This document shows positions 3,511 through 35,033 of a DNA stretch of 44,865 bases, one piece after another. Source of the DNA: Ramlibacter sp. Lineage in GTDB: Bacteria; Pseudomonadota; Gammaproteobacteria; Burkholderiales; Burkholderiaceae_C. Within the stretch, counting starts at the first letter, position 1. Each line of letters starts with the position of its first letter. The notes below the pieces were generated by a model, which worked only from the letters and a program-made list of their open reading frames with translations, ran no database searches and was not told the DNA's origin. Position numbers and translations under genes: made by a program. Location of the stretch: positions 1 through 44,865 of the forward strand of contig JAJTCN010000037.1 in assembly GCA_021323335.1 (NCBI GenBank). Reading direction: 5' to 3'.

Positions 3511-6015
3511 ATGGCCGACAAAAGCGCACTTCAAAAGTATCGGGACAAGCGCAACTTCGACGCCACGCCGGAACCGGCGGACGGCGGCGAGGCGAACGAA
3601 GCCGCGCGCAGCTTCGTCGTCCAGAAGCACTGGGCGACGCGGCTGCACTACGACTTCCGCCTCGAGCTGGAAGGCACGATGAAGAGCTGGGCCGTTCCCA
3701 AGGGCCCGAGCTACGACCCCTCCGACAAGCGCATGGCGATGCCCACCGAGGACCATCCCATCGCGTACAACCAATTCGAAGGCACCATCCCCGCCGGCAA
3801 CTACGGCGCGGGCAAGGTGATCATCTGGGACAAGGGCACCTGGGTCCCGCTGGAAGACCCGGCCAAGGGCCTGCGTGACGGCAAGCTGAAGTTCGAGCTG
3901 CGCGGGCACAAGCTGCACGGCCACTGGACGCTGGTGCGCATGAAGGGCCGCGGCAAGGGCCGCGAGGATCCCTGGCTGCTGATCAAGGAACGCGACGCCT
4001 TCGCCCGGCCGGTGGCGGAGTTCAGCCTGGTCGACGAGATGCCGGACAGCGTGCAGAAGCTCGCGGACCGGCCAGAAGCCGTTGGTGTCCGCGCTGCCGC
4101 ACCGGCGGCGGCCGTGGCCAGTGCCGCATCAGGGCCGCCGGAGGGCGCGCGCAAGGCCGCCCTGCCCGCGACGCTGCAGCCCGAGCTGGCGGTGCTGGTC
4201 GACGAGCCCCCGCAGGATCCGGAGCAGTGGATCTTCGAGATCAAGTTCGACGGCTACCGCATGCTGGCGCGCGTCGAAGGCGGCGAGATCCAGCTGGTCA
4301 CGCGCAACGGCAACGACTGGACCTCGCGCCTGTCCGGGCTGGTGGCGGCGCTGCGCGGCATGGAGCTGCCGGACGGCTGGTACGACGGCGAGATCATCAT
4401 GCCGGGCGAGGACGTGCCGGCGGACTTCCAGGCGCTGCAGGGCGCCTTCGACAGCAAGCGCACCGGGCAGATCGTCTACTACCTGTTCGACCTGCCGTAC
4501 TGCGCCGGCCACGACCTGCGCGACGTGCCGCTGCTGCAGCGGCGCGAGGTGCTGCAGCGCATCGTCGAGCGCAAGCCGCATGCGAACGTGCGCTTCAGCG
4601 AGGTGTTCGACGTGCCGCCGCGGCAGATGCTGGACTCGGCCTGCCGCCTCGGGCTGGAGGGCGTCATCGCCAAGCGCCGGGACTCGGCCTACGTGTGCCG
4701 CCGTTCCAGCGACTGGATCAAGCTCAAGTGCAAGCGGCGGCAGGAGTTCGTCATCGGCGGCTGGACCGACCCCAGGGGCTCGCGCGCCGGCATCGGCTCG
4801 CTGCTGCTGGGCGTGCACGACGACGACGGCAAGCTGCGCTACGCGGGCAACGTCGGCACCGGCTTCAACGACAGGACGCTGGCGGAAGTGCGCCGCCGGC
4901 TCGACGCGCTGGAGGCCGACCGCAGCCCGTTCGAGGCGGGCAGCGGCATGCCGCGCGGCAGCCATTGGGTGCGGCCGGAACTGGTGTGCGAGGTGTCGTT
5001 CGGCGAGTGGACGCGCGACGGCAAGGTCCGCCACTCGGTCTTCCACGGCCTGCGCAGCGACAAGCCGGCCGACGCGATCACCAAGGAGCCGGTGGTGCAG
5101 CAAGCGCCGGCGGATGCCGTCGCCACCCTGCCGCCAACGCTGCGCATCAGCAACCCGGACCGCGTGATCGACCCGCAAAGCGGTGCCACCAAGATCGACC
5201 TGGTGCGCTACTACGCGCTGGTCGCGCCGCTGATGATGGAGCACCTCAAGGGACGGCCGATCGCGATGGTGCGCGCGCCCGACGGCGTCGAAGGCCAGCT
5301 GTTCTTCCAGAAGCACCTGGACCGCTACAAGATGGAAGGGGTGGCGCAGCTCGACCCCGCGATCAACCCCGGCCACCCGCCGATGCTGGAGATCGCCAGC
5401 GAGCGCGGGCTGCTGTCCGCCGCGCAGATGAACGTCATCGAGTTCCACACCTGGAACGGCGTGAAGGGCGCCATCGGCAAGCCCGATCGCATGACCTTCG
5501 ACATCGACCCCGGCGAAGGCGTGGGCTGGCCGCAGATCCAGGAGGCGGCGACGCTGGTGCGCACGATGCTGCAGGAGCTGGGGCTGCCGTGCTTCCTGAA
5601 GACCAGCGGCGGCAAGGGACTGCACCTGGTCGTGCCGCTGAAGAAGCAGCTGGACTGGGACACGGTGAAATCGTTCTCGCAAGCCATCGTGCAGCACCTG
5701 GCGCGCACGCTGCCCGATCGGTTCGTGGCCAAGAGCGGCGCCAGCAACCGCGTCGGCCGCATCTTCATCGACTACCTGCGCAACGGCTACGGCGCCACGA
5801 CCGCGTGCGCGTGGTCGGCGCGGGCCCGGCCCGGCCTGGGCATTTCGGTGCCGGTGCGCTGGGACGAGCTGGGGGCGCTCAAGAGCGGCGCCCACTGGAC
5901 CGTGGGCACGGTGCACAGCCGGCTGGACCAGGGGAATGCGCCGTGGGCCGACTACGAGAAGAGCCGGGTCGCGCTGGGGGCGGCGATGAAGAAGCTCGGC
6001 TTCCAGGCCGGCTGA
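3511..6015 (+). CDS. ligD: multifunctional DNA ligase D (non-homologous end joining)
   Basis: 834 residues. It repairs double-strand breaks together with Ku. Domains run in the Pseudomonas order. A 3'-phosphoesterase comes first (about 35-165, with QKHWATRLHYDFRLE carrying the catalytic His residues). An ATP-dependent ligase follows (about 220-530, with adenylated Lys245 in EIKFDGYR). A primase-polymerase comes last (about 544-834, with the FDIDPGEG metal-binding aspartates near 664-666 and TSGGKGLHLVVPL). An Ala-rich linker (about 190-220) separates the first two. The start MADKSALQKY is chosen because it matches family N-termini; an in-frame start at 3463 would add 16 unlikely residues. No ku gene lies in the window, so it must be elsewhere. 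The gene ends 4 bases before a converging gene. Confidence 0.95.
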   Translation: MADKSALQKYRDKRNFDATPEPADGGEANEAARSFVVQKHWATRLHYDFRLELEGTMKSWAVPKGPSYDPSDKRMAMPTEDHPIAYNQFEGTIPAGNYGAGKVIIWDKGTWVPLEDPAKGLRDGKLKFELRGHKLHGHWTLVRMKGRGKGREDPWLLIKERDAFARPVAEFSLVDEMPDSVQKLADRPEAVGVRAAAPAAAVASAASGPPEGARKAALPATLQPELAVLVDEPPQDPEQWIFEIKFDGYRMLARVEGGEIQLVTRNGNDWTSRLSGLVAALRGMELPDGWYDGEIIMPGEDVPADFQALQGAFDSKRTGQIVYYLFDLPYCAGHDLRDVPLLQRREVLQRIVERKPHANVRFSEVFDVPPRQMLDSACRLGLEGVIAKRRDSAYVCRRSSDWIKLKCKRRQEFVIGGWTDPRGSRAGIGSLLLGVHDDDGKLRYAGNVGTGFNDRTLAEVRRRLDALEADRSPFEAGSGMPRGSHWVRPELVCEVSFGEWTRDGKVRHSVFHGLRSDKPADAITKEPVVQQAPADAVATLPPTLRISNPDRVIDPQSGATKIDLVRYYALVAPLMMEHLKGRPIAMVRAPDGVEGQLFFQKHLDRYKMEGVAQLDPAINPGHPPMLEIASERGLLSAAQMNVIEFHTWNGVKGAIGKPDRMTFDIDPGEGVGWPQIQEAATLVRTMLQELGLPCFLKTSGGKGLHLVVPLKKQLDWDTVKSFSQAIVQHLARTLPDRFVAKSGASNRVGRIFIDYLRNGYGATTACAWSARARPGLGISVPVRWDELGALKSGAHWTVGTVHSRLDQGNAPWADYEKSRVALGAAMKKLGFQAG

Positions 6016-6019
6016 AACA

Positions 6020-6697
6020 TCAAGCCCACGGCAAACGCAGGCGCACCGCCTGCGTGCCATTGGTCTCCACGCCGATGCCGTCGGCCAGCGCCAGGGCGTG
6101 CAGGTCCACCCATGCCAGCTTGCGGTAGTTGGGCTCGCTGCTGAAGGGATGCTCGCCCTCGGTGGGCCGCACTTCGATCGTCAGCTGCCCGCCACTGTCG
6201 CCGGCGTCGCCGGTGATCACCAGGTCGGCGGGCGCCGGCAAGTGGTCGGTGCAGTGGATCAGCGTGGCGGTCAGCAGCGTGCGGGCGCCCGAGCGGCGGA
6301 TGGCCCCGGGCAGCGCGGACACCTGGTTGCGCAGCGCGTAGCCGCGAAAACTCAGGCTGGTGGCCAGCAGTGCGGCGCACTCGCGCACCACTTCCTCCAG
6401 GGTCGTGGTGGCGGTGTCGTCCGGCGCCAGCCAGCCGATCACGTCCAGGCTCGAGGCCAGCGCGGCCTTGGCGAAGCCGTTGATCTTGCCCGCGCTGTCC
6501 TGCACATGGGCCAGGTCGGGCGTGGGGGCGCGCAGGCGCCGCTCCATCACCTCGTAGATCATGCCGATCGGCTGCAGGTTGACGACGAGGTGGTGGCGCA
6601 TCGATGGCGCCAGGCGCCGGATGAGCGCGTAGCGGGCAGCCTCGGCCTGGAGCGAAGGCACGGCAGGGCTGCCGGGTGCGACGGAGGGTGAAGGCAT
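6020..6697 (-). CDS. degenerate histidine-kinase-like protein, possible phosphotransferase
   Basis: 225 residues, soluble. The N-terminal half has a segment like a dimerisation/phosphoacceptor helix (RRLAPSMRHHLVVNLQPIGM, about 28-47) with two adjacent His residues. The C-terminal half resembles the end of a GHKL ATPase domain (LVITGDAGDSGGQLTIEVRP, then VDLHALALADGIGVETNG and VRLRLPWA), but the N box and the DxGxG and GxG motifs needed to bind ATP are absent. It has no sensor or receiver domain. By analogy with ChpT it could be a phosphotransferase or a kinase-like regulator; this is inference. The ATG at 6697 has TACGCT exactly 6 bases upstream. The TTG at 6733 gives a longer but less likely product. 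Confidence 0.6.
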   Translation of the reverse strand: MPSPSVAPGSPAVPSLQAEAARYALIRRLAPSMRHHLVVNLQPIGMIYEVMERRLRAPTPDLAHVQDSAGKINGFAKAALASSLDVIGWLAPDDTATTTLEEVVRECAALLATSLSFRGYALRNQVSALPGAIRRSGARTLLTATLIHCTDHLPAPADLVITGDAGDSGGQLTIEVRPTEGEHPFSSEPNYRKLAWVDLHALALADGIGVETNGTQAVRLRLPWA

Positions 6698-6703
6698 GCT
6701 CCG

Positions 6704-6709
6704 AGCGTA
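6704..6709 (-). promoter_or_regulatory. putative leaderless -10 box (TACGCT)
   Basis: TACGCT on the minus strand ends 6 bases before the ATG at 6697, matching the TANNNT-N6-start pattern seen at a dozen other genes here. It supports that start choice. No clear -35 box was seen. Confidence 0.4.
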
Positions 6710-6740
6710 GGGGAAGCCGGAGGAAGCTGTCAAACGCGGC

Positions 6741-8585
6741 TCATTCCACCGTCACGCTCTTCGCCAGGTTCCTGGGCTTGTCCACGTCCGTTCCACGCGC
6801 GATGGCCGTGTGGTACGCCAGCAGCTGCAGCGGCACCACGTGCAGCAGCGGGCTGAGCGCGCCATAGTGTTCCGGCATCCGGATCACGTGCACGCCTTCG
6901 CTGCTCTCGATGCGGCTGTCGGCGTCGGCCAGCACGTAGAGCACGCCGCCGCGCGCGCGCACTTCCTGCATGTTGCTCTTCAGCTTCTCCAGCAGGGCGT
7001 CGTTGGGCGCCACCGTCACCACCGGCATCTCGCTGGTCACCAGCGCCAGCGGGCCGTGCTTCAGCTCGCCGGCGGCATAGGCCTCGGCGTGGATGTAGGT
7101 GATCTCCTTGAGCTTGAGCGCGCCTTCCAGGGCGATCGGGTAGTGCAGGCCCCGGCCCAGGAACAGCGCATGCTCCTTGTCCGCGAAGTCCTCGGCCCAG
7201 CTGATGACCTGCGGCTCCAGCGCCAGCACCGCGGACAGCGCGGCCGGCAGGTGGCGCATCGCCTTCATGTGCGCCGCCTCTTCCTCGTCCGTCAGGTGGC
7301 CGCGCAACTGCGCGAGCGTCAGCGTCAGCAGGAACAGGCCGGCCAGCTGCGTGGTGAAGGCCTTGGTGGACGCGACGCCGATCTCGACGCCGGCGCGGGT
7401 GATGTAGGCCAGCTTGCATTCGCGCACCATCGCCGAAGTGGACACGTTGCAGATGGTCAGGGTGTGCTCCATGCCCAGCCCGCGCGCATGCTTGAGCGCC
7501 GCCAGCGTGTCGGCGGTTTCGCCGGATTGGCTGATGGTGACGATCAGCGTGCGCGGGTTGGGCACGCTTTCGCGGTAGCGGTACTCGCTGGCGATCTCCA
7601 CCTGGGTCGGGATCTTCGCGATGGACTCCAGCCAGTACTTGGCCGTGCAGCCGCTGTAATAGCTGGTGCCGCAGGCCAGGATCAGCACGTTGTCGACCTG
7701 CTTGAACACCGACAGCGCGTTGTCGCCGAACAGCTCCGGCATGATGTTCAGCACGCCCTCGAGCGTGTCGCCGATGGCGCGCGGCTGCTCGAAGATCTCC
7801 TTCTGCATGTAGTGCCGGTACGGGCCCAGTTCGGCCGCGCCGCTGTGCGCCTGCACCGTCTTCACCGGCCGCGTCGCGGGCTTGTGGTTGCGGTCCACGA
7901 TCCAGTAGCGCCCCAGTTGCAGGTCGACGACGTCGCCCTCCTCCAGGTACACGATCTGGTCCGTCACGCCGGCCAGCGCCATGGCGTCGCTGGCCAGGAA
8001 GTTCTCGTCCTTGCCGACGCCCAGCACCAGCGGCGAGCCGGCGCGCGCGCCGATGACGCGGTGCGGTTCGTCCTTGCAGAACACGGCGATGGCATAGGCC
8101 CCGTGCAACTGGCCGAGCGCGGCCTTCACGGCCTCGAACAGGTCGCCCTCGTACAGGCTGTCCACCAGGTGCGCGATCACCTCGGTGTCGGTCTGGCTGT
8201 TGAACTTGTAGCCCCGCGCCTGCAGCGCGGCGCGCAGCTCGTCGTGGTTTTCGATGATGCCGTTGTGCACCAGGGCGATCCGGCCCGGCGCCGCCGACGC
8301 CGCTTCGCCCGGGCCGTGGCTGAAGTGCGGGTGGGCGTTGTGGACGGCCGGCGCGCCGTGCGTGGCCCAGCGCGTGTGGGCGATGCCGGTGCCGCCGGCG
8401 ATGTGTTCGGTGGCCACCTGGTCGGCCAGTTCCGCCACGCGCGCGGTGCTGCGTGCCCGCTTCAGGCCGTCCGCGTACACGGCCACGCCGCAGGAGTCGT
8501 AGCCACGGTACTCCAGGCGCTGCAGGCCCTGGACCAGGATGGGGACGATATCGCGGGTGGAAACCGCGCCGACGATGCCGCACAT
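6741..8585 (-). CDS. glmS: glutamine--fructose-6-phosphate aminotransferase (isomerizing)
   Basis: 614 residues, the normal length. It makes glucosamine-6-phosphate from fructose-6-phosphate and glutamine, the first step toward UDP-GlcNAc for peptidoglycan and lipopolysaccharide. The N-terminal class II amidotransferase domain starts MCGIVGA, with Cys2 as nucleophile after Met removal. Two SIS sugar-binding domains follow (one includes ACGTSYYSG and [12 protein letters not shown]). The C-terminus [12 protein letters not shown] is conserved and closes the active site. An AAAGGG motif lies 7 bases upstream of the ATG. The gene diverges from an Lrp regulator and is close to glmU, the last enzyme of the same pathway. 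No glmS ribozyme is present in the 124-base upstream gap. Confidence 0.97.
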
Positions 8586-31437: not shown

Positions 31438-32082
31438 ATGGAAGCCACGCGCATCATCGCCGTCCGGCATGGCGAGACGCCCTGGAACGTGGATGCGCGC
31501 ATCCAGGGGCAGCTCGACATCCAGCTGAACGACACCGGCCGCTGGCAGGCCCGACGGGTGGGCCACGCGCTCACTTCCGAACAGCTTGCCGCCATCTACT
31601 CCAGCGACCTCGGCCGTGCGCACGAAACCGCCCGCGCCATCGGAGACGTGCAGCGCATCCCCGTCGTGGCCCATCCCGGGCTGCGCGAGCGGCGCTTCGG
31701 CCTCTTCGAGGGCAAGACTTTCGACGAAATCCACCAGACCTGGCCCGAGCACGCGCAGAACTGGAAGCGGCGCATCCCCGAGTGGGAGCCGCCCGAAGGC
31801 GGCGAGTCGCTGCTGCAACTGCGCGAGCGCGTCACCCGCACCATGAGCGACCTGGCGTCGCGCCACCGCGGCGAGCAGATCGCCGTGGTCGCGCACGGCG
31901 GGGTGCTCGATACGCTCTATCGCATCGCCACGGGCCAGGAGGTCAACTCCCCGCGCACGTGGCAACTGCCGAATGGCGCCATCAACAGGCTGCTGTGGAC
32001 GCCCGAGGGCTTCACCCTCGTGGGCTGGTCGGACACCCAGCACCTGGACCATGCATCCTTCGACGAAAACACCTCTTTCTGA
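31438..32082 (+). CDS. histidine phosphatase family protein (phosphoglycerate-mutase-like)
   Basis: 214 residues. The phosphohistidine motif VRHGETPWN places the catalytic His at residue 11; the second site is VVAHGGVLDTLYR, and the acidic loop is ERRFGLFEGKTFDEI. The length and motifs resemble GpmB/CobC-type broad phosphatases. The substrate is not decided by sequence. Its last 32 bases overlap the start of the next gene, so the two are likely translated from one mRNA. Confidence 0.9.
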   Translation: MEATRIIAVRHGETPWNVDARIQGQLDIQLNDTGRWQARRVGHALTSEQLAAIYSSDLGRAHETARAIGDVQRIPVVAHPGLRERRFGLFEGKTFDEIHQTWPEHAQNWKRRIPEWEPPEGGESLLQLRERVTRTMSDLASRHRGEQIAVVAHGGVLDTLYRIATGQEVNSPRTWQLPNGAINRLLWTPEGFTLVGWSDTQHLDHASFDENTSF

Positions 32083-33244
32083 CGAACTGCGCCGCCTGAT
32101 CGGCCAGCCCGTCGCCGCGATCGACACCCCCGCCCTCGTGGTCGACCTCGACGTCATGCAGCGCAACCTGGCGCGCATGGCCGACTTCGCCCGCAAGCAC
32201 GACGTGCGCTGGCGGCCCCACGCCAAGATGCACAAGAGCTCGGCCATCGCCCGGCTGCAGATGCAGGCGGGCGCCGTCGGCGTCTGCGTGCAGAAGACGA
32301 GCGAAGCCGAGGCCATGGTGGCCGGCGGAGTGAACAACGTCTACATCAGCAACGAGGTGGTGGCGCCGTCGAAGCTGGCGCGGGTGGCGGACCTGGCGCA
32401 TCGCGTCGCCGCCGAACAGGGCCAGCTCGCCATCGCGGTCGACAGCGTGGAAGGCGTGCACCGCCTGGCCAATGCCATGGCGGACCGCCGCCGCACCGGG
32501 GACGCCGCCGTCATCGACGTGTTCATCGAGATCGACGTCGGCCAGGGCCGCTGCGGCGTGCGCCCCGGCCGGGCCGGACTGGAGCTGGCGCTCGCCATCC
32601 GGAAGCATCCCGCGCTGCGTTTCGCCGGGCTGCAGGCCTATCACGGGCGGGCCCAGCACCTGCGCACGCCGCAGGCGCGCCGCGAGGCGATCGGCCAGGC
32701 GGTGCAGGACGTGCTGTTCACCCGCAAGACGATCGAAGCCGAGGGCATCCCGGTCGACCTGGTCACCGGGGCCGGCACCGGCAGCATGGTGTGCGAAGCC
32801 GCCAGCGGCGTGTACGGCGAGCTGCAGGCCGGCTCGTTCATGTTCATGGACGCCGACTACGCCGCCAATGCGCACGACCCGGCGCAGCCGCAGTTCGAGC
32901 ATGCGCTGTTCGTCAAGTCGCAGGTCATGAGCTCCGGCCTGCTGCACGCCGTCTGCGACGCCGGCCACAAGGCGCACGCCATCGATTCCGGACTGCCGTT
33001 CGTGCTGACGCGCGAGCCGACCGGCGAGCTGGAATACGCCAACGGCGGCGACGAGCACGGCCTGCTGCGGCCCAAGGGCGGCAACCAGCGCATCCCGAGG
33101 CTGGACGAGACGATCTGGCTGATCCCCGGGCACTGCGATCCGACGGTCAACCTGCACAATTTCCTGGTAGGCGTGACCGGCGGCCTGGAAAACGGCCGGG
33201 TGGACAAGATCATCCGGGTTGACGCGAGAGGCGCGCTGACCTGA
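32051..33244 (+). CDS. DSD1/D-threonine aldolase-like PLP enzyme
   Basis: 397 residues. Fold type III (alanine-racemase-like barrel) enzyme. The PLP lysine is Lys59 in RPHAKMHKS, the same position as in characterised D-threonine aldolases. The metal-binding His and Asp are in GHCDPTVNLH near the C-terminus. LVTGAGTGSM binds the cofactor phosphate. It could cleave D-threonine or D-3-hydroxyaspartate type substrates; the exact one is open. It starts inside the end of the histidine phosphatase gene (32-base overlap) without its own good ribosome binding site. Confidence 0.88.
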   Translation: MHPSTKTPLSDELRRLIGQPVAAIDTPALVVDLDVMQRNLARMADFARKHDVRWRPHAKMHKSSAIARLQMQAGAVGVCVQKTSEAEAMVAGGVNNVYISNEVVAPSKLARVADLAHRVAAEQGQLAIAVDSVEGVHRLANAMADRRRTGDAAVIDVFIEIDVGQGRCGVRPGRAGLELALAIRKHPALRFAGLQAYHGRAQHLRTPQARREAIGQAVQDVLFTRKTIEAEGIPVDLVTGAGTGSMVCEAASGVYGELQAGSFMFMDADYAANAHDPAQPQFEHALFVKSQVMSSGLLHAVCDAGHKAHAIDSGLPFVLTREPTGELEYANGGDEHGLLRPKGGNQRIPRLDETIWLIPGHCDPTVNLHNFLVGVTGGLENGRVDKIIRVDARGALT

Positions 33245-33263: not shown

Positions 33264-35033
33264 ATGAAATTGTCCCCCAGCCAGGTCATCGTGCTGGCCA
33301 CACCCGTGTTCCTGCTGCTGATCGCGGTGGAGATCGCCTGGGGCGCCTGGCGCGGCCGCAACACCTACCGCCTGAACGACGCGATCAACAGCATCTCGCT
33401 CGGCATGCTGAGCCAGATCACGGCGGTGCTGACGCGCCTGTTCCGCATCGGCATCTACACGGCGGTGTTCTCCTGGGTGTCGCTCTGGCACGCCGACGAC
33501 TTCTGGATGTCGCCGGTCGGCTGGCTGCTGGCGCTGGTGTTCTACGACTTCTGCTACTACTGGCTGCACCGCGCCGGGCACGAGGTGGCCATCTTCTGGG
33601 CCGCGCACGTCGTGCATCACCAGAGCCAGGACTACAACCTCTCCACCGCCTTGCGCCAGACCAGTTCCGGCGCGCTGCTCGGCTGGATCTTCTACCTGCC
33701 GATGGCGCTGGCGGGCGTGCCGCCGCTGGTGTTCGGCGTCGTGGCGCTGGTCGACCTGCTGTACCAGTACTGGGTGCACACCGAGCACGTCGGCAAGCTG
33801 GGCTGGTTCGACCGCTGGTTCTGTTCGCCCTCCAACCATCGCGTGCACCACGCGGTCAACGACAGCTACCTCGATCGCAACTACGGCGGCATCCTCGTCA
33901 TCTGGGACCGCCTGTTCGGCAGCTTCCGCGAAGAGGACGAGAAGTGCGTGTACGGCACGCGCGCGCCCCTGCAAAGCTGGGACCCGCTGTGGTCGAACTT
34001 CGAGGTGTACTGGGCGCTCGCCAAGGACAGCTGGCACGCCCGCTCCTGGGCCGACAAACTGCGGGTGTGGATCAAGCCGCCGGGCTGGCGGCCGGCCGAC
34101 GTGGCGGCGCGCTTCCCCAGGCCGGCGTTCAGCATGGAGGGCGTCACGCGCTACCACCCGCCGATGACGCCGTCCATGGCCTGGTTCGCGGGGCTGCAGT
34201 TCACGGTGATCCTCGGCGGCGTCGCGCTGTTCCTGTGGCATGCCGACCAGATGCCGCTGCGCCAGTCCGTGGTGTGGCTGGCCGTGCTGGCCGCGTCGCT
34301 GTGGGCGATCGGGGCCGCGATGCAGGGCCGCATCGGGATGCTGGAGGTGCTGCTGATCGAAGCCGGGGCGCTGGCCACGGCGTCGGCGGCGCAGGGCTGG
34401 ATCGACCTGCACCGCGTCTTCAAGCCGCTCGCCATGGTGCTGGCCATCGTGTTCGTGCTGCAGCGCTCGGGGTGGCTGCGGGCTGCGGGCCGCTTCGAGT
34501 TCAAGCTGCTGGCGGCGCTGGCGCTGTGCCTGGCGGGCGACGTGCTGCTGATGCTGGAAGGCCTGTTCATCCCCGGGCTGGTGAGCTTCCTGGCCGCGCA
34601 CCTTTGCTACCTGGCCTTGTTCAAGCAAGGCCAGCGGTGGTTTCCCAGCGGGCGTGCGCTCGCTGCCACGCTCGCCGCGGCAGTCGCGATGGTTGCCTTC
34701 CTGTTCCCGCACCTCGGACCGGTGCTGAAGGTGGCAGTGGCGGCGTATGCCGTCGTCATCGCGCTGATGGCCGCGCAGGCGATCGGGCGTGCGGTGGTGC
34801 TGCGCGATGCGGCGTCCGTCGCGGTGGCGGCCGGGTCGGTGGTCTTCATGCTCAGCGACACGCTGCTGGCGATCAACAAGTTCGCGCAGCCGCTGCCGAT
34901 GGCGCAGTTCTGGGTGCTGGCGACCTATTACGCGGCGCAGGTGCTGATCGTGCGCAATGCGCGTCCGACGGCGGCCGCCGCGACGGCCCCGGCCGGCTGG
35001 GAGCCGGTGCGCGCGCCCCGGTCCGTCAGCTGA
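33264..35033 (+). CDS. alkylglycerol-monooxygenase-like / lysoplasmalogenase (YhhN) fusion protein
   Basis: 589 residues, integral membrane. Residues 1 to about 300 are a fatty acid hydroxylase/sterol desaturase domain with the di-iron His clusters HRAGH (102-106), HVVHH (115-119), HTEH (172-175) and HRVHH (192-196). The stretches SQDYNLSTALRQTS and NYGGILVIWDRLFGSF closely resemble animal alkylglycerol monooxygenase (TMEM195). Residues about 335-565 form a YhhN/TMEM86 domain, with KPLAM (387-391), CLAGDVLLM (Asp426), AHLCYL (His446) and FMLSDTLLA (Asp532). The first type of enzyme cleaves alkyl ether lipids and the second the vinyl ether of lysoplasmalogens, so a joint role in ether-lipid turnover is inferred. 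It overlaps the converging ABC gene by 8 bases. Confidence 0.88.
   Translation: MKLSPSQVIVLATPVFLLLIAVEIAWGAWRGRNTYRLNDAINSISLGMLSQITAVLTRLFRIGIYTAVFSWVSLWHADDFWMSPVGWLLALVFYDFCYYWLHRAGHEVAIFWAAHVVHHQSQDYNLSTALRQTSSGALLGWIFYLPMALAGVPPLVFGVVALVDLLYQYWVHTEHVGKLGWFDRWFCSPSNHRVHHAVNDSYLDRNYGGILVIWDRLFGSFREEDEKCVYGTRAPLQSWDPLWSNFEVYWALAKDSWHARSWADKLRVWIKPPGWRPADVAARFPRPAFSMEGVTRYHPPMTPSMAWFAGLQFTVILGGVALFLWHADQMPLRQSVVWLAVLAASLWAIGAAMQGRIGMLEVLLIEAGALATASAAQGWIDLHRVFKPLAMVLAIVFVLQRSGWLRAAGRFEFKLLAALALCLAGDVLLMLEGLFIPGLVSFLAAHLCYLALFKQGQRWFPSGRALAATLAAAVAMVAFLFPHLGPVLKVAVAAYAVVIALMAAQAIGRAVVLRDAASVAVAAGSVVFMLSDTLLAINKFAQPLPMAQFWVLATYYAAQVLIVRNARPTAAAATAPAGWEPVRAPRSVS

What the first reader, a model, noticed from the sequence alone, without database searches (positions are those of the whole stretch)
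33264..35033. Fusion of an alkylglycerol-monooxygenase-like domain to a lysoplasmalogenase domain
One reading frame joins a di-iron membrane hydroxylase very like TMEM195 (all His clusters present) to a YhhN/TMEM86 lysoplasmalogenase. Both characterised families break ether or vinyl-ether bonds of glycerolipids. The fusion suggests a single membrane enzyme for ether-lipid breakdown in a bacterium not expected to make plasmalogens, perhaps for scavenging or detoxifying eukaryotic ether lipids. Which lipid is used is inference.
Basis: partly seen in the sequence, partly recalled or inferred. Interest (0 to 1): 0.7.

Follow-up and report, generated by a model that had tools for sequence, protein, structure and literature searches.

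The report
Fused two-headed ether-lipid-cleaving membrane enzyme
A Ramlibacter-like bacterium carries one protein that joins a relative of the animal enzyme that cuts alkyl ether lipids to a relative of the enzyme that cuts vinyl ether lipids, and it would likely let a cell that is not known to make such lipids break down both kinds taken from its surroundings.

Summary
One intact 589-residue frame (33264-35033, +) carries PF04116 (87-220) and YhhN PF07947 (383-564), both far above cut-off. All 16 residues reported as functional in human AGMO, including the tetrahydrobiopterin glutamate, and the 8 reported for TMEM86A are present, invariant in 81 of 81 fused frames. That glutamate is Arg in 17 of 21 distant hydroxylases.

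The fusion arose about once, in and near Comamonadaceae; databases already list the domain pair.

New here: the pairing goes beyond the fusion. Separate hydroxylase and YhhN genes abut in three other families, in both orders, though only one of those hydroxylases has the glutamate. Outside the home family, 11 of 12 YhhN-bearing genomes of the class sample hold a hydroxylase, against 6 of 257 without YhhN.

Best reading: a bifunctional lyso-ether-lipid cleaver, both halves releasing fatty aldehyde. The substrate is inference. The one bacterial AGMO-like enzyme found characterised in print makes cycloprodigiosin, so another substrate is the main rival. Within-genus contrasts do not confirm the association.

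The parts
33264..35033 (+). Fused AGMO-like hydroxylase + YhhN lysoplasmalogenase-like protein, 589 aa
33522..33923 (+). FA_hydroxylase domain PF04116 (residues 87-220) with nine conserved His (102,106,115,118,119,172,192,195,196), Q132, D204, N206, Y207, W214, D215
33582..33584 (+). Codon of E107, counterpart of human AGMO E137 (tetrahydrobiopterin glutamate)
   Evidence: role from PMC3617469 (passages)
34170..34394 (+). Predicted C-terminal membrane helices of the hydroxylase half (residues 303-377); the tail of 2 of 12 unfused hydroxylases scanned singly weakly matches AGMP_C PF24858
34410..34955 (+). YhhN domain PF07947 (residues 383-564) with K387, G425, D426, H446, G524, S531, D532, Y555
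31973..33244 (+). Upstream open frame, Ala_racemase_N + D-ser_dehydrat (D-threonine-aldolase-like, name recalled), ends 19 bases before the fusion; neighbour only, no functional link claimed

Best explanation
The protein is predicted to be a bifunctional inner-membrane enzyme that would strip the sn-1 chain from lyso-ether lipids: its AGMO-like di-iron half likely oxidises saturated alkyl ethers and its YhhN half likely hydrolyses vinyl ethers. Shown here: both domains, every residue that the papers seen report as functional in the two animal enzymes, a fusion that the trees trace to about one origin, and pairing of the two genes outside the fusion. From the literature: AGMO uses O2 and tetrahydrobiopterin to turn the sn-1 alkyl ether into a hemiacetal that falls apart to a fatty aldehyde and a glycerol derivative; [quoted passage not shown] both need a free sn-2 hydroxyl. 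Inferred: the halves act in parallel on the two versions of one lyso-lipid skeleton, the aldehyde is oxidised and used as carbon, and the lipids come from protists, animals, myxobacteria or anaerobes in soil and water.
For: Both Pfam domains far above cut-off. 16 of 16 AGMO functional residues (15 essential plus E137) and 8 of 8 TMEM86A residues present; invariant in 81 of 81 fused frames (relative to the published positions there is a one-residue shift between Q162 and H201 and a two-residue shift at H104). Glu at the tetrahydrobiopterin position in 98 of 101 fused and 25 of 36 close unfused hydroxylases, against 3 of 21 distant ones, which have mostly Arg; PMC3617469 (passages) says no other family member then known had a Glu there. 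The tail of 2 of 12 unfused hydroxylases scanned singly matches AGMP_C PF24858 at 27.2 and 25.5 bits, cut-off 28.3. Gene pairing outside the fusion: three abutting pairs in families f10, f14, f42, gap 1-2 bases or ATGA overlap, both orders. Co-occurrence (both / YhhN only / hydroxylase only / neither): class sample outside the home family 11/1/6/251, 8 of 9 YhhN-bearing families; order sample outside it 8/1/32/250; unfused genomes of the home family 31/15/10/108. Control: YhhN against phenylalanine hydroxylase PF00351 in the same family sample, odds ratio 0.42.
Against: No assay of any fused protein. Prodigiosin cyclase PRUB680 shows that a bacterial AGMO-like enzyme need not cut ethers (passages of PMC6667630, PMC7484904, PMC7911779). 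3 of 101 fused and 11 of 36 close unfused proteins lack the Glu; of the three abutting pairs only L108 has it, L113 has Thr and L107 Lys, and L107's hydroxylase lies in the distant clade. The co-occurrence counts do not ask for the Glu. They are not corrected for ancestry or genome size: within genera the two genes change together in 3, in opposite directions in 2 and singly in 10 of 58. None of 13 class places has the genes side by side; 55 of the 58 unfused places looked at in family and order do not either. Tetrahydrobiopterin supply untested: pterin dehydratase is present but is near universal in the family, 181 of 200. PF24858 matches neither the fused protein nor any of the 50 members of A1. 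No PDB sequence relative, and the model's catalytic loop is of low confidence (residues 187-208 below 50).
Confidence: 0.55

Rival explanations
1. The hydroxylase half oxidises some other lipid or small molecule (as PRUB680 cyclises prodigiosin, or OlsE hydroxylates ornithine lipid), and YhhN acts on a lysolipid of the same membrane pathway.
For: Bacterial AGMO-like PRUB680 acts on prodigiosin (passages). The only NCBIfam match is OlsE, though far below its cut-off (54.8 against 475 bits). Two of the three abutting pairs use a hydroxylase without the pterin Glu.
Against: In the fused proteins all AGMO functional residues are kept in 81 of 81, the pterin Glu in 98 of a wider 101; the partner in fusion, abutting pairs and co-occurrence is the lysoplasmalogenase family.
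Confidence: 0.25
2. Sequential reaction: the di-iron half desaturates an alkyl ether to a vinyl ether, which YhhN then hydrolyses, so that neither half alone clears alkyl lipids.
For: Substrate and product would fit the two halves; di-iron His-box enzymes include desaturases (family knowledge). Fusion and abutting genes.
Against: AGMO chemistry already ends in aldehyde (PMC7911779 passages); the known ether desaturase CarF/PEDS1 is a different Pfam family, PF10520 (recalled). Each half occurs without the other in some genomes.
Confidence: 0.08
3. The fusion is a neutral accident: two unrelated membrane proteins that happened to be joined once and are inherited by descent.
For: About one origin of the fusion; halves later lost in some genomes, e.g. 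6 of 15 YhhN-only genomes have YhhN from the fused clade. Weak within-genus contrasts.
Against: Full conservation of both residue sets over 81 proteins; abutting unfused pairs in three other families; co-occurrence across 8 families of the class sample.
Confidence: 0.1

Closest known systems
Alkylglycerol monooxygenase (AGMO/TMEM195), EC 1.14.16.5
   Same: FA_hydroxylase domain, nine His, six further essential residues and the tetrahydrobiopterin Glu, at matching spacing but for a one-residue shift
   Different: Bacterial; C-terminally fused to YhhN; no activity shown; PF24858 C-terminal domain not detected in the fused protein
Lysoplasmalogenase (YhhN/TMEM86A/B; Legionella and Mycobacterium members characterised, PMC9052158 passages), EC 3.3.2.2
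   Same: PF07947 over 383-564 and all eight conserved residues
   Different: The characterised members are single-domain (recalled); this one is the C-terminal half of a fusion
PRUB680, AGMO-like prodigiosin cyclase of Pseudoalteromonas rubra
   Same: Bacterial AGMO-like oxidase (passages)
Ornithine lipid hydroxylase OlsE (NF052566)
   Same: Weak match over residues 37-226
   Different: 54.8 bits against a cut-off of 475

Membership tests
FA_hydroxylase superfamily (PF04116) | Profile match over cut-off and eight-histidine motif | tested here: met
   105.2 bits, cut-off 31; all nine His in 158 of 158 hydroxylase domains compared
AGMO | Residues essential in human AGMO (nine His, Q162, D233, N235, Y236, W243, D244) | tested here: met
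   positions from passages of PMC3617469 and PMC7911779; matched by spacing, not by alignment to the human sequence
AGMO | Glutamate E137 for tetrahydrobiopterin | tested here: met
   E107; 98 of 101 fused, 25 of 36 close unfused, 3 of 21 distant
AGMO | AGMO C-terminal domain PF24858 | tested here: inconclusive
   no match in P0001 or the other 49 members of A1, nor in the cut-out tail; 2 of 12 unfused hydroxylases scanned singly reach 27.2 and 25.5 bits, below cut-off 28.3
AGMO | Pterin-dependent cleavage of alkylglycerols | not testable with these tools
   needs an assay
YhhN / lysoplasmalogenase | PF07947 over cut-off | tested here: met
   154.9 bits, cut-off 25.6
YhhN / lysoplasmalogenase | Eight conserved residues K43 G81 D82 H104 G182 S189 D190 Y213 (TMEM86A) | tested here: met
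   list from PMC11994398 (passages); 81 of 81
YhhN / lysoplasmalogenase | Vinyl-ether hydrolysis of lysoplasmalogens | not testable with these tools
   needs an assay
OlsE ornithine lipid hydroxylase | NF052566 curated cut-off | tested here: not met
   54.8 against 475 bits

The most novel reading that the evidence does not exclude
AGMO-like oxidase plus YhhN is a general bacterial module for taking apart ether lipids, kept as two loci, as an abutting gene pair or as this fusion, and it explains why aerobic bacteria that make no plasmalogens carry YhhN: they eat the ether lipids of others, alkyl and vinyl alike.
Probability: 0.42. Interest if true: 0.75.

Novelty: new variant of a known kind. 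Interest (0 to 1): 0.58.

Why it matters
PMC9052158 (passages) states the open question: many microorganisms encode YhhN but not the machinery for plasmalogens, which raised the doubt what YhhN acts on there. A fusion with, and genomic pairing to, a relative of AGMO, which PMC7911779 (passages) calls the only known enzyme that cleaves alkylglycerols, gives that question a direct test. If active, it would be, to my knowledge, the first bacterial AGMO-type ether-cleaving enzyme and a self-contained one for both sn-1 ether types. AGMO is told to be very labile in purification (PMC7911779 passages), so a bacterial form could also be a useful handle.

Tried and rejected
Pterin recycling as a discriminating test: pterin-4a-carbinolamine dehydratase is in this genome while phenylalanine hydroxylase was not found, which looked promising, but the dehydratase is in 181 of 200 family genomes, so it does not discriminate.

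Plasmalogen synthesis (PF10520) in the own genome: no match, control silent, so uninformative.

Promoter/terminator scan: nothing beyond chance.

Co-occurrence within genera: not confirmed (3 together, 2 opposite, 10 single, 43 no change, of 58 genera; for the own genus two of its three genomes compared).

Adjacent genes in the class sample: none of 13 places.

Corrections made on checking: G458, first counted as an unfused pair and as an unfused row inside the fused clade, has its hydroxylase cut by a contig end, so it says nothing about fission; counts are given with it set apart. G325, counted as fused, has a short 407-aa frame that lacks the front of the hydroxylase. G398 and G405, whose YhhN lies in frames of about 600 aa, have no hydroxylase in those frames.

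The first spacing script used rigid offsets and missed several residues by one or two places; the positions given were read with the shift and checked in the alignment.

Literature: YhhN with fatty acid hydroxylase and fusion, lysoplasmalogenase with sterol desaturase, alkylglycerol monooxygenase with bacteria and fatty acid hydroxylase superfamily each found 0 papers. Lysoplasmalogenase with alkylglycerol monooxygenase found 6: listing only for five, passages of PMC9131029. YhhN alone found 22: listing, and passages of PMC11994398 and PMC9052158; listings, and passages of PMC3617469, PMC7911779, PMC6667630, PMC7484904. Nothing seen describes the fusion; the library holds only open-licence papers.

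Full report
What is there. The + strand frame 33264-35033 encodes 589 residues without an internal stop, starting at ATG 19 bases after the stop of an upstream frame. Pfam finds FA_hydroxylase at 87-220 (105.2 bits) and YhhN at 383-564 (154.9 bits), both well above cut-off. The window lies in a 4.49 Mb, 165-contig genome, 89.7% complete; the nearest named relatives are Ramlibacter. The genome's only YhhN match is this one, and it has a single hydroxylase match of this kind at E <= 1e-40.

Residues. Positions reported as functional were taken from passages of papers: nine His, Q162, D233, N235, Y236, W243, D244 and the pterin glutamate E137 of human AGMO (PMC3617469, PMC7911779) and K43, G81, D82, H104, G182, S189, D190, Y213 of TMEM86A (PMC11994398). 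Not all of the last eight are essential: that paper excepts H104 and G182 of TMEM86A, and H108 and S182 of TMEM86B, from the drop below 10% activity. Counterparts: H102, H106, E107, H115, H118, H119, Q132, H172, H192, H195, H196, D204, N206, Y207, W214, D215 and K387, G425, D426, H446, G524, S531, D532, Y555. They are invariant in 81 of 81 fused frames, the window's and L001-L080 (those 80 are the best of 293 relatives). Counterparts were placed by spacing from published positions, with a shift of one residue between Q162 and H201 and of two at H104, not by alignment to the human sequences, which I did not have. In a wider set of 158 distinct hydroxylase domains, which includes those loci, the pterin glutamate is Glu in 98 of 101 fused, 25 of 36 close unfused, and 3 of 21 distant proteins (17 Arg, 1 Lys); the nine His are kept in all 158.

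Where the hydroxylase half ends. The model puts helices at 303-327, 332-353 and 359-377 before the YhhN helices begin at 380. Close unfused relatives mostly lie in open frames of about 370-450 aa. Of 12 unfused hydroxylases scanned singly, two match Pfam's AGMO C-terminal domain in this tail, at 27.2 and 25.5 bits, cut-off 28.3. The fused protein and the other 49 members of alignment A1 do not match it.

Distribution and origin. In 200 genomes of the home family, 82 hold YhhN and 77 a close hydroxylase (E <= 1e-75; a gap separates it from matches at 3e-57 and worse); 35 have both in line, 34 of them in one frame of 577 aa or more and one, G325, in a 407-aa frame lacking the front of the hydroxylase. 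In the order sample YhhN is in 15 of 300 (one below cut-off), in the class sample in 15 of 272 (one below cut-off). The hydroxylase tree (97 rows) puts the 40 fused rows together with two unfused rows (SH-aLRT 89); one of the two, G458, is only cut by a contig end, the other, G362, is a real unfused gene. The YhhN tree puts 34 fused rows with six unfused ones (SH-aLRT 96). Those six genomes are among the 15 YhhN-only ones of the family sample, which reads as loss of the hydroxylase half. One origin with later losses is the simplest reading; both are short searches with many weak branches.

Pairing without fusion. Of 68 YhhN places in the family and order samples that were fetched with their surroundings, 10 are fused and 58 are not; three of the 58 have a hydroxylase next door: L113, YhhN 4888-5559 then hydroxylase 5561-6778; L107, YhhN 5694-5014 then hydroxylase 5011-4163 on the minus strand; L108, hydroxylase ending at 5061, with the YhhN frame overlapping it at ATGA. 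They belong to families f14, f42 and f10; in the order sample outside the home family that is 3 of 9 YhhN genomes over cut-off. At the pterin position L108 has Glu, L113 Thr, L107 Lys; L107's hydroxylase lies in the distant clade, the other two in the AGMO-like one. No adjacency in 13 class places.

Co-occurrence (both / YhhN only / hydroxylase only / neither). Class sample outside the home family, 269 genomes: 11/1/6/251, Fisher p 1.3e-14; with the sub-cut-off YhhN 11/2/6/250; 8 of 9 YhhN-bearing families. By best match, 9 of those 17 hydroxylase genomes have the Glu, and 6 of the 9 hold YhhN. Order sample outside it, 291 genomes: 8/1/32/250 at E <= 1e-40, 8/2/32/249 with the sub-cut-off YhhN, 5/4/14/268 at E <= 1e-75. 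Home family, genomes without the fusion: 32/15/10/108 at E <= 1e-75, or 31/15/10/108 with G458 set apart; 34/13/26/92 at 1e-40, or 33/13/26/92. Phenylalanine hydroxylase as a control partner of YhhN gives the opposite sign, odds ratio 0.42. These counts ignore ancestry and genome size; among the 58 genera sampled more than once the two genes changed together in 3, oppositely in 2, singly in 10. So the breadth over families and the abutting genes, not the p values, carry the argument.

How it would work. AGMO needs O2 and tetrahydrobiopterin, makes a hemiacetal that yields a fatty aldehyde and a glycerol derivative, and works on alkylglycerols or lyso-alkyl-phospholipids, not vinyl ethers (PMC7911779 and PMC9131029 passages). 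YhhN enzymes of man, Legionella and Mycobacterium hydrolyse lysoplasmalogens to aldehyde and glycerophospho-base; the Mycobacterium one had no activity on intact plasmalogens (PMC9052158 passages). Both thus want the same lyso skeleton and give the same kind of products, differing in the sn-1 bond: a good reason to be kept together. That the halves work in parallel, that the lipids are external, and that the aldehyde is eaten is inference.

Against. A bacterial AGMO-like enzyme, PRUB680, cyclises prodigiosin (passages), so homology does not fix the substrate. Pterin supply is untested; dehydratase presence is uninformative. Plasmalogen synthesis was not excluded. The pairing includes hydroxylases without the pterin Glu, so it may be wider than ether cleavage.

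Novelty. The domain pair is in databases, under names such as lysoplasmalogenase family protein or alkylglycerol monooxygenase. No paper describing the fusion or the pairing was seen in searches of an open-licence library. Both halves are known kinds; the wider pairing is, as far as these searches go, new.

Noticed in passing
L269 and L268 (genomes G522, 0.9 Mb, and G666, 1.2 Mb): Very small genomes of the class keep an AGMO-like gene with all 16 functional residues, pterin Glu included, without a YhhN match; unexpected if the enzyme only serves scavenging.
   Followed up: partly
G303, G313, G359, G389, G413, G433 (L115, L126, L121, L151, L127, L159): YhhN-only genes nested in the fused YhhN clade, one (L151) still aligning from residue 306 of the fusion: the hydroxylase half seems lost.
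   Followed up: partly
L107:4163-5694: YhhN and a hydroxylase of the distant clade (Lys at the pterin position) two bases apart: a separate pairing with another hydroxylase subfamily.
   Followed up: partly
window 31438-33244: Histidine phosphatase and D-threonine-aldolase-like genes lie upstream; each found in 57 of 80 fused loci, the second most often 23 bases (match end to match start) before the fusion. Meaning unknown.
   Followed up: partly
L180, L189, L194: Three fused proteins have Gly, Val or Arg at the pterin glutamate position.
   Followed up: no
P0124: An 877-aa database version of the fusion, about 290 residues longer; real extension or gene-calling artefact not checked.
   Followed up: no
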